Below are positions 36,486 to 43,477 of a stretch of DNA of 64,000 nucleotides, piece by piece. The position numbers and the translations under genes were made by a program. Numbering within the stretch: the first letter of the stretch is position 1; every line of letters starts with the position of its first letter. Below the pieces are notes generated by a model. It had not been told where the DNA came from. It made no database searches and saw only the letters and a program-made list of their open reading frames with translations. The stretch lies in contig NW_017265162.1 in NCBI RefSeq assembly GCF_001638985.1, forward strand, positions 434,001 to 498,000, given 5' to 3'. This stretch comes from Phycomyces blakesleeanus NRRL 1555(-) (lineage: Eukaryota > Mucoromycota > Mucoromycetes > Mucorales > Phycomycetaceae).

Positions 36486-36556
36486 ATCCTAGGGAGACGA
36501 CATTTTCAGGATGGGAGACGACGTTTTGACTTTACCGGACTAATTGATTGTGACTA
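36486..36556 (+). repeat. Left terminal repeat of the Mutator-like element
   Basis: Contains two tandem copies of the GGGAGACGACRTTTT unit, then TTTACCGGACTA. Matches the reverse complement of the right end once the inserted LTR is removed from the right end. Confidence 0.8.
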
Positions 36557-36803
36557 TCTGTCCGGGGCCCGATGTCTTCTCTCCAATCCTTCAGGGCAAA
36601 ACGGTGTGTCCTGAAATTCTTAATTCAATATTTGATTATAAAACCTTCTTTTCTATTATTTACTCATCTCGTAAGAACTTACTAATCAAATGTATTAGAG
36701 AATAATGTTTTTCTCGGAGATATCAAAGACATTACTTTGCTCATTGCAGATTAGCAATTAGAAATCATGATGTTAATAAGTACTTTCTAGAATTTACTTC
36801 AAT

Positions 36804-39800
36804 ATGAACCCTATCAATAAAGAAATCCGTTTTTTTAATGGAAAAGAACATTTTCCTGTCCAACAACCTCTCCCCATCCCACCAGTTAATGGTTATAATG
36901 ACGTGCAGCTGGCAATTGCAAAGATGCAAGAATATGCCCTCGCCAACAACTTCGCACTTGTCATCAAAGATGGTAAACCAACTCGAGTTTACTTGAAGTG
37001 TTCTAAGGGTGGTCACTATAAAAACACCCGAAAGATTGACGACAACGACCGTAAGAAAATTCCTTCTAGTGGAATGATTGGGTGCCCGTATCTCCTTAAG
37101 GTATCCTACAAGAAGGCAGCCAAAGGATATTTTCTCTTGAAGGCCACTCATGAGATCGAAGCCTTCCACAACCATCCCCTTGACGATGAATGTATGGAGT
37201 CTATTTTGAAGGGCAGACTCTCAAGAGTTACAACAGAAGATTCTATCATGATAACAAAGCTTATCGAGACAAATACCAAGACTCGTGAGATTCAAAAAGC
37301 AATCAATGACGAAGCATACCCTGGCCATAAGTTGTACGTTAAAGACATTGATAACATGAAGGCAGCATATGCTCGTGTTTCTGCTCCTACTCTTCAGGAT
37401 GATGGAACAAAGCTCATCAAAGCTATGGAGTCGAAGGGTTACCAAGTTCGCTATGAGACTAATAAGAGTGGGTGCCTCGAGAGAATCCTGTTTAGTCACC
37501 CCAAAATTTTGGAAAGAGCCCAGAAACTCTCCGAAGTTATGGTGGTGGATGCAACATACTCGACAAACAACTTGGGAATGCCTCTTATTTGCATCGAGGG
37601 TGTTCACAACCTTGGAGGGGAAACCTTAAAATCTTTTCCAATTGCATTTGCCTGGGTCTCCAATGAGCAAACCGGTTCTTACGTTTGGTTTTTGGAACAA
37701 ATCAAGGCACTTGTTTTTGAGAACAAGCAATCAACCACTCTGTTTGTAACAGACAAGTGTTCTGCTTTAATGAATGCACTTGACACTGTTTTCCCAGAAA
37801 ACAAGAAGCTTTTGTGCTACTGGCATATGCTGAACAGTTTGGAGAAAGCTTTCTCTGGGAAAACGAAGTCCGTAGCCGAGAAAGAAGAGCTTATGGATCA
37901 TGTAAGCCGCATGATCCATAGTAGAACTAAGGTGGAGTTCAACTTGGCTCTCCTAAAGTTTAACGACGCTTGTGCTGGGCTAGAAGTAGATGATGGCAAG
38001 GCCAGAGCACCGGCATCAACCTACTTCTCCGAAAGGTGGTTGAATTGCAAAGATAAGTGGGCAGGGTATATCACTAGCAAGCTTATGCATTTCGGGTGTA
38101 CCACCACTCAGCGAGTAGAAAGTGCTCATCAAGCTTTTAAGAGAGGCATCTCTGCTATTTCTTCTCTGGGGTTGGCCTTTGAGAGTGTGGCCAAATACAT
38201 TGAAAGGCTAGAGATGGATTTCCGAGCAACAAGGATAAGAGAAACGAACACGATCGATGTTCTTGTTGGACGAAACCAATGTCTCTCAAACCTCTTCATG
38301 AAGGTGTCAAAGCGAGCGTTGCTTGTACTTGACCAGGAGCTCCGTTTACCAGAAGATGATGAGAAGTGCTATTGCATGAACAAAGTCCAATATGGCCTAC
38401 CTTGTCACCATACCCTACCAGTAGAAAGGGATCTTAAAATCTCTGATCTACCAGATAGATGGGTTATTGATGCTAGAAAGGAAGACAAGGCATGGAATCA
38501 GTCAAATATGCAAGTTCCTGTCATCGAAAAACCCGAGGAGTGGATGAGTGAAATCATTAAGCTTGAAGCTTTATTCCGCTCTTGCGAAGGCAGCCAGCAA
38601 GTTGCTGATCTTTTAAAAAAAGTGAAAAAAGCTGTAAATGACTTTGATGGCAAAAATGGTCATTCTCCTATCAAACTGCAAGCGCCAGAGAACGTCAAGT
38701 ATCCAGGAAGACGCAAAGGCAGCAGACGTCCTAAATACTTGCCAAAGGACTTTGGTCGCCCAATGTGGAGAAAGACAAGTATCTTGGCTGGAACTGTAAG
38801 TTTCGTGATTTACTTATATTAAACATAGGACAAAACTAATTATCTTAATGGAATTATAGGCCGGGATTAAGGCAATGTACCGACGAAAGGTTACAAAGAT
38901 GGTTGAAAAGAGTTTATCTGGCCTTAAGGTCACAAGAAAACAAAACAAAAATATTAAAAAAATCAAAAAAGAGCCTCTCGACTCAGGTAAGATGCGTTTT
39001 TAATTTAAAATTTAATTGAGTTTATGAGAAGAACTCTTGTCTTATATATACACAACTTTCTTAGTCAATGCTACCAAAAACAAAACAAAACAAATTGAAA
39101 AGGAGCCTCTCGACCCAGGTAAAATGCGCTATTATTTTACAATGTGATTGAATTCATTAAAAGTAATCTAATACTAATACTAATATTCGTTTTAGTCGAT
39201 GCCACCAAAAACAAAACAAAACAAGTAAAACAATAGCCTCTCGACCTAGGTAATATTCTTTCTTATTTTACAGTGTAATTGAATCCATAAAGAGAAATAT
39301 CGTCTTATACTTATATACTTTTTAGTCGATGCCCCCCAAAAAAATGGGTTCAAAAGACCCGCCACCGCCTTAGAAGATTACCAGTATGATAATCGCACCT
39401 CTGTTGGCAAGAGGGTCAAATTCCAGCCCGGTTTTCCTGTCTCTCATGAGATAATCGATGATGTCAAGGGTGGGTTTAGCCCTACTGCTGACGGATGGTG
39501 TGGTTTTCGAGTCCTTGCCCACTTGATCTACAAAGATCAAAATAAGTTTCCACTTGTAAAAAGGGATATGCTAGCCGCCCTGCCGAAATACAAAACATTG
39601 TACGCAAATACTTTTGGCACTGACACAAGCCAACTAGAAAAAATTATTCAACATGGTTCTCAACTCGATTATAGCAACACCAGCAACACCAACACCAACA
39701 CCAACACCAACTTCATCCCAGTATGTTCAGATGCCAGTATGTGGTTTAACACACCCGACTGTGCTCAACTAGCTGCGGACACATATACACGACCAGTCTG

Positions 39801-40125
39801 CGTCTGCTCAGACAGCCCCAACACCCCCTCAACAACCTTTCTTCCATTCGCCCTTCCCAACAACAAAACCAAACAACGACAACCTCTGATTTTTAATCAT
39901 GTTAACAGTAATCACTGGACAACAGTTGACCTTTCCCATAATATCTCTAGAAAATTGCCAACCGTTCCCGAATTATTTTTTTTAGGTTATGCCAGGAATA
40001 AGATTGATGATAACTTTGATACTTACTGGAATAAGCTCAAAGAATTTAATAAGCATGACCGCAGAAATGCTATGCTCTCTCTCCATTCACAGCGAGATGA
40101 ACCAATTGATCTTACTCCAAAATAA
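36804..40125 (+). CDS. MULE transposase with C-terminal OTU cysteine peptidase
   Basis: Exons 36804-38795, 38860-38986, 39065-39118 and 39326-40125 join in frame to 990 residues. Order: FAR1/WRKY-GCM1-like zinc DNA-binding region (about 29-130; CSKGGHYKN, GCPYLLK, HNHPL), MULE catalytic core (Asp in MVVDATYSTN near 247, Asp in LFVTDKCSALM near 316, then CYWHM), SWIM zinc finger (about 522-538; CYCMNKVQYGLPCHH), a Lys-rich linker encoded by small repeated exons, and an OTU-type peptidase (about 725-990; DGWCGFR with the nucleophile Cys near 783, NHW with the His near 921). A fourth 54-base module at 39196-39249 has perfect splice signals and keeps phase but contains TAG at 39234; skipping it gives the fusion, including it ends the protein before the peptidase. 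The transposase mobilises the element; the peptidase role is unknown. Both long domains lack stops, so decay is slight. Confidence 0.85.
38987..39325 (+). repeat. Tandem intron-exon modules in the transposase linker
   Basis: Three units of about 130 bases, each an intron starting GTAA and ending TTAG followed by an exon starting TCGATGCC or TCAATGCT. Exons at 39065-39118 and 39196-39249 are both 54 bases and nearly the same (both contain ACAAAACAAAACAA and CCTCTCGACC). The third unit leads into the OTU exon with TCGATGCC. They appear to have arisen by tandem duplication of one intron plus mini-exon. Confidence 0.8.
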
Positions 40126-42600: not shown

Positions 42601-42757
42601 TGGGAGACGATGTTTCCAGGTGAGAGACGACATTTTGACTAGATTCTAAACTCAGCCATATAAAGATGGGAGACAACCTTTTGGTCAAAGTATAAACTCC
42701 GACAAATAGGTGTGGGAGACGATGTTTTCAGGGTGGGAGACAACATTTTTTTATTAG
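42601..42757 (+). repeat. Internal array of terminal-repeat units
   Basis: Five copies of the GGGAGACRAYRTTTT unit in the same orientation as the left end of the element, arranged as pair, single, pair. The pairs have the same spacing and linking bases (TTTYCAGG) as the terminal pair. Confidence 0.85.
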
Positions 42758-43002
42758 GGTATACTGTCTTAAAGTAGCATGATAGGCATTCATTTTATTA
42801 TTATATATATATATAAAATAATGCATGAATATATTGTATATATATATGTATAAAATTATATACTTACTATGATGCTTTTACATTTAGCCAAATTCATTAT
42901 CTTGTCTTGCATTAAAGTATCTTTATTATGATAAGTATGAATCCTTAGGGACCAGATGTAGTTATTTGATGCCGGAAAGCAAGTCATGATTTGTAGTCCG
43001 GT

Positions 43003-43405
43003 TGTTATGTATGAGGTAAAAATAAGATATAAAATAAAACAAGTGCAGACGAGAGTACGGTGAGACTTTGTTTTATTAGAAGAAGTAAAAGAATCAGAAA
43101 AGAGATGCTGTTCTATTGCTATTAGTATTGTGCGTTTATATAGACATTGTATTTAGCTTGGTGATGATATGATGATATCATGTAATGTCTGTTTCTCTAC
43201 CATTATCTTCTATGATTTAGTTCTTATGTTTTTAGTGTTATTGACTAGAGTCTTAGTATTTGTCTTAGTATGTTCTTTACGTAATTTCCTTGTATAAAGG
43301 AAGGTATATCTTTTAGTATCGTTACTAGTTGTCGGTAACTCAATGTACGTATTTATTGAGTGTCTGTACTTTTAATTTAAATCTACGATTATGTTGGATA
43401 CAACA
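43003..43405. mobile_element. Solo LTR inserted in the transposon's right end
   Basis: A 403-base segment beginning TGTTATGTATGAGG and ending GGATACAACA, so it has the TGTT...AACA termini of LTR retrotransposons. It is flanked on both sides by CCGGT (42998-43002 and 43406-43410), a 5-base target-site duplication. Removing the LTR and one CCGGT restores a right terminus that matches the left terminus through TTTACCGGACTA. No internal retroelement genes are present, so it is a solo LTR. Its transcription direction was not determined. Confidence 0.85.
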
Positions 43406-43477
43406 CCGGTAAAATCAAAATGTTGTCTCCAACCTGAAAACGTCATCTCCCATCTGGAAACGTCGTCCCCCTAGGAT
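43406..43477 (-). repeat. Right terminal repeat of the Mutator-like element
   Basis: Inverted copy of the left end with three instead of two GGGAGACGAC-type units. Its inner continuation (TAGTCCGGT, ending at 43002) lies on the far side of the solo LTR. Confidence 0.8.

What the first reader, a model, noticed from the sequence alone, without database searches (positions are those of the whole stretch)
36486..43477. 7-kb Mutator-like element whose transposase carries an OTU peptidase
A FAR1-MULE-SWIM transposase fused to an OTU cysteine peptidase recalls the plant Kaonashi MULEs that carry a ULP1-like SUMO protease, but uses a different peptidase class. The peptidase might strip ubiquitin from the transposase or from host silencing factors. 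Both active-site motifs appear intact.
Basis: partly seen in the sequence, partly recalled or inferred. Interest (0 to 1): 0.9.

Follow-up and report, generated by a model that had tools for sequence, protein, structure and literature searches.

The report
Jumping gene with built-in ubiquitin remover
A DNA transposon family in the fungus Phycomyces carries a gene that joins its cut-and-paste enzyme to an OTU-type peptidase domain, predicted to strip ubiquitin tags and likely to protect the enzyme from being destroyed by the host; the pairing recurs in many copies and in one protein not encoded by this genome, which makes ubiquitin control of jumping genes testable.

Summary
The finding holds, with corrections. 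The window lies in Phycomyces blakesleeanus. The element spans 36481-43482 (7002 bp); 1494 bp of that are three nested solo LTRs with one copy each of their target repeats. Its five-exon gene joins a MULE transposase to a C-terminal OTU-type peptidase, but this copy has a premature stop in exon 4. Five sibling loci and one copy of a second family read open through the fusion. Four of six copies checked have perfect 9-bp target duplications; the window copy has none. The OTU call rests on profile matches (viral OTU, OTUD5) and on predicted models whose listed PDB matches are OTU-type; Pfam alone misses the window domain. Catalytic Cys and His are kept in all 54 loci checked from three divergent MULE lineages; dN/dS is 0.07-0.23 between diverged subfamilies. 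A 983-aa protein not encoded by this genome has the same architecture. The peptidase module was swapped between subfamilies (silent-site difference 0.09 against 0.73 for the transposase). Repeated linker exons carry a SUMO-consensus-like motif, and families A and B end in a DLT tail resembling a SUMO-interacting motif. Deubiquitinase activity, substrate and any SUMO role are untested. I saw no report of OTU in MULEs in the papers searched.

The parts
36481..43482 (+). whole Mutator-like element, 7002 bp, termini CAGCGATCCTAGG...CCTAGGATTAGTG; no target duplication at this copy
   Evidence: termini shared with sibling copies, four of which have perfect 9-bp target duplications
36481..36527 (+). 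left terminal inverted repeat with the GGGAGACGACGTTTT unit
   Evidence: inverted repeats I7 and I8; 100 bases from 36486 have 40 scored matches in the genome
43437..43482 (-). right terminal inverted repeat
   Evidence: inverted repeats I7 and I8; 11 matches of the last 100 bases
36804..38795 (+). exon 1: MULE transposase (DDE core; SWIM-like CxCx9CxH, pattern recalled)
   Evidence: PF10551 E 3.4e-21, PF21056 E 2.7e-10; gene model
38860..38986 (+). exon 2, linker (first KxEPLD motif)
   Evidence: GT..AG splice model
39065..39118 (+). exon 3, 54-nt linker module
39196..39249 (+). exon 4, 54-nt linker module; holds the premature in-frame stop of this copy
38956..39342 (+). 131-bp tandem repeat, three copies, each spanning a linker exon end and its intron
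   Evidence: Tandem Repeats Finder, score 372
39326..40125 (+). exon 5: OTU-type peptidase domain and C-terminal tail
39415..40122 (+). peptidase region used for alignment A1; Cys codon 39499-39501, His codon 39913-39915
   Evidence: Cys and His kept in 58 of 58 rows of other loci, 54 distinct
40102..40122 (+). C-terminal PIDLTPK, resembling a SUMO-interacting motif (recalled pattern)
   Evidence: D[LF]T tail in 36 of 39 family A/B rows
40609..41141 (.). nested solo LTR, target duplication GTATT
41483..42025 (.). nested solo LTR, target duplication TAATC
43003..43405 (.). nested solo LTR, target duplication CCGGT

Best explanation
This is a Mutator-like DNA transposon of the fungus Phycomyces blakesleeanus whose gene joins a MULE transposase to a C-terminal domain that matches OTU cysteine peptidases, predicted to be a deubiquitinase and likely to act in cis, trimming ubiquitin off its own transposase so that it would escape proteasomal clearance long enough to transpose. 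Shown by the calls: the fused gene (open in sibling copies), the terminal inverted repeats, the 9-bp target duplications at sibling copies, the OTU match by profile and predicted model, conserved Cys and His, low dN/dS, and recurrence in three MULE lineages plus one protein not encoded by this genome. Inferred: peptidase activity, ubiquitin as substrate, action in cis, and the protective outcome. More speculative: the KxEPLD linker repeats are SUMO acceptor sites and the DLT tail binds SUMO, so the peptidase would oppose SUMO-targeted ubiquitin ligases. The window copy itself is an interrupted member of a family with intact copies.
Against: No enzymatic, expression or transposition data. The Asn/Asp that usually follows the catalytic His by two (recalled) is Thr in the A and B rows and Leu or Phe in the C rows, so activity is not assured. 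Pfam's OTU model misses the window domain; its best E among 21 members is 0.008 (C65: 0.0034), and a C protein with E 0.049 scores 14.6 bits against a cut-off of 23.3. Psi-K-x-E counts in family B and P0025 linkers are no higher than in shuffles, family C has none and its copies end without the DLT tail, and both motif patterns were chosen after seeing the sequences.
Confidence: 0.45

Rival explanations
1. The OTU acts in trans: the transposase carries it to chromatin, where it deubiquitinates histones, silencing factors or DNA-repair proteins near the element, easing expression or repair of the donor site.
For: The finding's own suggestion; Bao et al. 2010 (PMC2836005, passages) propose that OTU/Ulp1 domains of transposases may act on repair factors. 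The fusion to a transposase would localise the activity.
Against: Nothing in the sequence points to a particular host substrate.
Confidence: 0.27
2. The OTU is a catalytically weak or dead ubiquitin-binding or structural module that helps assemble or localise the transposase.
For: The usual third triad residue is missing (contexts); Pfam scores are weak.
Against: Cys and His kept in all 54 distinct loci, including decayed copies whose neighbouring residues have changed.
Confidence: 0.15
3. The peptidase cleaves the transposase precursor itself at the repeated linker, separating transposase from peptidase like a viral polyprotein protease.
For: Repeated linker motif between the domains in families A and B; some viral OTU-type enzymes also process polyproteins (recalled).
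Against: The linker repeat KQEPLD does not look like a ubiquitin-like Gly-Gly site; I saw no such repeat in the family C linker of L070.
Confidence: 0.07
4. The OTU is a captured host gene fragment carried as neutral cargo, as in transduplication by plant MULEs.
For: MULE-borne C48 genes in plants are thought to have spread by transduplication (PMC6117577 passages).
Against: Constant position, shared splice architecture in A and B, low dN/dS, three lineages and one protein not of this genome. The Pfam OTU model finds only 2 places in the genome, neither among these loci.
Confidence: 0.04

Closest known systems
Kaonashi (KI) MULEs of plants
   Same: Mutator-like elements that carry a peptidase of the ubiquitin-like-modifier kind (PMC6117577 passages)
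   Different: Kaonashi carry a C48/ULP1 peptidase; this one has an OTU-type domain, in a fungus, fused to the transposase C-terminus
Ginger1 transposons
   Same: transposase with a C-terminal OTU or Ulp1 domain (PMC2836005 passages)
   Different: Ginger1 uses a Gypsy-integrase-like DDE domain; this is a MULE transposase with 9-bp target duplications
OTU/VTD-bearing Helitrons (Helentrons)
   Same: transposon-encoded deubiquitinase-class domains, OTU among them; neither viral nor transposon OTUs tested for activity, as that paper says (PMC9741609 passages)
   Different: RepHel rolling-circle protein, no DDE transposase
OTUD5/DUBA, VCPIP1 and nairovirus OTU deubiquitinases
   Same: closest solved structures by profile and predicted fold
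   Different: 8-22% identity in the structural alignments; the usual Asn/Asp after the catalytic His (recalled) is not found here

Membership tests
Mutator-like elements (MULE) | MULE DDE transposase domain | tested here: met
   PF10551 E 3.4e-21, 76 bits against cut-off 27.6
Mutator-like elements (MULE) | terminal inverted repeats and target-site duplications of about 9 bp (length recalled) | tested here: met
   perfect 9 of 9 at 4 of 6 copies; window copy and L041 3 of 9
   PF03101 E 0.11, below cut-off; E 6e-4, still below cut-off, in P0025
OTU deubiquitinases | OTU fold | tested here: met
OTU deubiquitinases | catalytic Cys and His | tested here: met
   58 of 58 rows, 54 distinct loci
OTU deubiquitinases | third catalytic residue | tested here: inconclusive
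   Asn/Asp two after His absent (Thr in A and B; Leu or Phe in C; contexts); A20-type OTUs place the acid elsewhere (recalled), not resolved here
OTU deubiquitinases | cleaves ubiquitin | not testable with these tools
   needs an enzyme assay
Kaonashi MULEs | C48/ULP1 peptidase domain | tested here: not met
   no Peptidase_C48 among Pfam matches at E<=1; OTU-type instead
Ginger1 | Gypsy-integrase-like transposase | tested here: not met
   transposase matches PF10551 MULE; no integrase family among the 4 Pfam matches at E<=1

The most novel reading that the evidence does not exclude
A transposase that is its own SUMO-guided deubiquitinase: repeated psi-K-x-E linker exons are SUMO acceptors, the IDLT tail holds SUMO, and the OTU removes the ubiquitin that SUMO-targeted ubiquitin ligases would add, so the element defeats the STUbL/Cdc48 route for clearing DNA-bound protein complexes.
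Probability: 0.2. Interest if true: 0.88.

Novelty: new variant of a known kind. Interest (0 to 1): 0.66.

Why it matters
Peptidases of the ubiquitin/SUMO class recur in unrelated transposons (Ulp1 in MULEs and Ginger1, OTU in Ginger1 and Helitrons, VTD in Helitrons; passages), yet Hermanns et al. [quoted passage not shown] Here the peptidase is fused to the transposase itself, is conserved across three lineages in a laboratory fungus, and several copies read open, so a two-domain protein can be assayed directly for both transposition and deubiquitination. If active, it would make the older suggestion that ubiquitin controls transposition testable with a single active-site change.

Tried and rejected
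Pfam on the window domain: no OTU/C65 hit; 7 and 8 of 21 members of A1 hit OTU and C65, best E 0.008 and 0.0034. PF02338 across the genome found only 2 places, neither among these loci. Single-protein searches with the OTU regions of families A and C found only Phycomyces (1 protein from 284 candidates; 1 from 314); the alignment search gave 26 proteins, 25 named Phycomyces and P0025 (the 7994 candidates sharing most words were scored). I checked that P0025 is not simply another Phycomyces copy. The first structure model of the family A peptidase was poor (mean pLDDT 51.6), so weight is put on the family C model. The invariant columns are biased because members had been picked by an active-site pattern; they were replaced, which uses BLAST rows. 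A first tail scan used a wrong pattern and was redone (42 rows, 3 off-target, 36 of the other 39 with the tail, 9 of these in a shifted frame of decayed copies). A first peptidase comparison used a wrong reading frame and was not used. Family B and P0025 linkers show no excess of psi-K-x-E over shuffles, and family C has none. Neutral gene capture rejected. Papers: ten searches gave no paper in which I saw OTU in a MULE; of the papers opened I saw passages only (in one search none of the terms occurred). Muszewska et al. 2017 on fungal transposons is not held and might report it.

Full report
What is there. The window lies at C29:434001-498000 of a 53.5-Mb assembly. A protein search identified it as Phycomyces blakesleeanus NRRL 1555(-): the hit's contig length (1515579) equals that of C11, which holds the sibling copy L041. 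Open reading frame 36804-38822 is a MULE transposase (PF10551 E 3.4e-21, PF21056 E 2.7e-10; FAR1 only E 0.11). Further 3', frame 39283-40125 holds a second domain with DGWCGFR and NHW motifs. A five-exon model with GT..AG introns joins them into one gene, with one in-frame stop in exon 4 of this copy. A looser splice search finds 4 open paths for the window copy through other splice sites; I do not count them as a model.

Intact siblings. Splicing by script gives stop-free fused genes of about 1000 aa in L042, L043 and L044 and in L006 and L008 (L005, also open there, is the same locus as L042). L041 gave none, nor did L003 and L007; for L002 (the L041 locus) and L004 that script found no start, so they were not tested by it. 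Family B (transposase about 42% identical) is open across a five-exon fusion in L065, placed by hand (the automatic search found no path there).

Element boundaries. The reported inverted repeat (36486/43477) is internal by five bases: at C31, C7, C1:2811k and C1:1271k perfect 9-bp direct repeats flank CAGxx...TAGxx (4 of 6 copies; the window copy and L041 show 3 of 9). The window element is 36481-43482. Against L041 it carries three insertions, each with TG..CA ends and a 5-bp target duplication, i.e. solo LTRs of 533, 543 and 403 bp. The first belongs to an abundant family (43 matches; 540 candidates, 40 scored); the other two were not searched.

Copies and association. The transposase has 69 matching stretches in the genome, the peptidase 139. 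I merged coordinates copied by hand: 69 of 93 rows (the other 24 being mostly family A/B copies) and 48 rows, picked by me as not obviously in those lists, as an 'other' class that includes some family-B-like copies; one search did not list all its 166 matches. Result: an OTU stretch lies within 5 kb downstream on the same strand in 41 of 42 family A, 15 of 17 B, 32 of 55 C and 18 of 48 other MULE loci; 105 of 114 merged OTU stretches have a MULE upstream. Counts are lower bounds because only the best candidates were scored.

Active site and selection. In BLAST rows not chosen by motif, Cys and His are present in 58 of 58 (33 A, 10 B, 15 C; four repeat other loci, so 54 distinct), although neighbouring residues vary in some copies. 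The residue two after His is Thr in the A and B rows and Leu or Phe in C, not the usual Asn/Asp (recalled). Pairwise NG86 dN/dS is 0.20 and 0.23 for OTU between diverged A subfamilies and 0.07-0.19 between diverged C copies where dS is finite; diverged transposases give 0.07-0.09 with dS above 2, so near saturation. Recently separated pairs are noisy (OTU 0.24, 0.35, 0.46, 0.85, 2.12; transposase 0.13), and five OTU and two transposase pairs with saturated dS give no value.

Module exchange. The window and L043 differ at 73% of silent sites in the transposase but 9% in the peptidase (pS). Nucleotide identity is 61-73% up to about 39080 and 94-100% from 39281 to 40680; at finer grain it rises at about 39200-39260, introns included, inside the zone of 131-bp tandem repeats made of linker exon plus intron (38956-39342). 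So the peptidase module most likely moved between subfamilies by recombination or conversion there.

Beyond this genome. A search with the C-terminal part (580 residues of the lead sequence) of families A, B and C gave 26 proteins from 7994 scored candidates: 25 named Phycomyces and P0025, 983 aa on a 3037-bp contig of unnamed source, 36% identical to L043 along the fusion, with a MULE domain, CxC..CxH, GDGHCGYRA and NTHW. It is not in this assembly: the best matching stretches there are 28-44% identical. Its organism is unknown.

Possible SUMO link. The class A linkers repeat K[QK]EPLD, with 2 psi-K-x-E each in three linkers tested; 1-3% of shuffles reach this. B and P0025 have 1 each, as in shuffles (50% and 44% reach it); C has none. 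Thirty-six of 39 A/B rows keep a D[LF]T tail before the stop, 9 of them in a shifted frame. P0025 ends ELIPVLSSDEE. Shuffles of the A, B and P0025 tails match my SIM pattern in 0.3-2.3% of cases; the L042 tail itself does not match it. Patterns are recalled and were chosen after seeing the sequences, so this is a lead.

Mechanism. The most economical reading is a cis-acting deubiquitinase that protects its transposase; trans action on chromatin or repair factors is the main rival. Activity itself is untested. Hermanns et al. [quoted passage not shown] Bao et al. 2010 (passages) report OTU in Ginger1 and Helitron and Ulp1 in Mutator, and name no OTU in Mutator in the passages seen.

Novelty. 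OTU on a transposase (Ginger1) and a modifier peptidase on a MULE (Kaonashi) are both known; the combination OTU plus MULE, its spread over three lineages and its swapping are what I did not see in ten searches of an open-licence library. A relevant survey of fungal transposons was not held. UniProt-type names already mark several of the Phycomyces proteins as OTU-domain proteins, so the domain itself is not unannotated.

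Noticed in passing
window 40609-41141, 41483-42025, 43003-43405: Three solo LTRs nested in one element, each with 5-bp target duplications; the first is a high-copy family with some same-strand pairs about 5.6 kb apart, suggesting full-length LTR elements elsewhere.
   Followed up: partly
window 36481-43482 and L041: Two closely similar copies (97% or more over the gene) both lack target duplications although four other copies have perfect 9-bp ones; chimeric ends or flank loss not resolved.
   Followed up: no
P0027 (Phycomyces protein): A protein named homeodomain-like transcription factor contains a piece of this OTU module; gene-model artefact or real fusion not decided.
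   Followed up: no
L061-L064, L070: Family C MULEs (about 30% identical to family A) share the OTU module but not the KxEPLD linker or DLT tail; 23 of 55 had no OTU call downstream.
   Followed up: partly
window 43667-43751: tRNA-Leu (AAG) gene 185 bp beyond the element's right end.
   Followed up: no
window 32545-34308 + and 32764-33933 -: A long open frame lies antisense to a frame that looks like HSP70 (recalled resemblance, not searched).
   Followed up: no
window 46849-48306 -: Frame resembling a velvet-family regulator (recalled resemblance, not searched).
   Followed up: no
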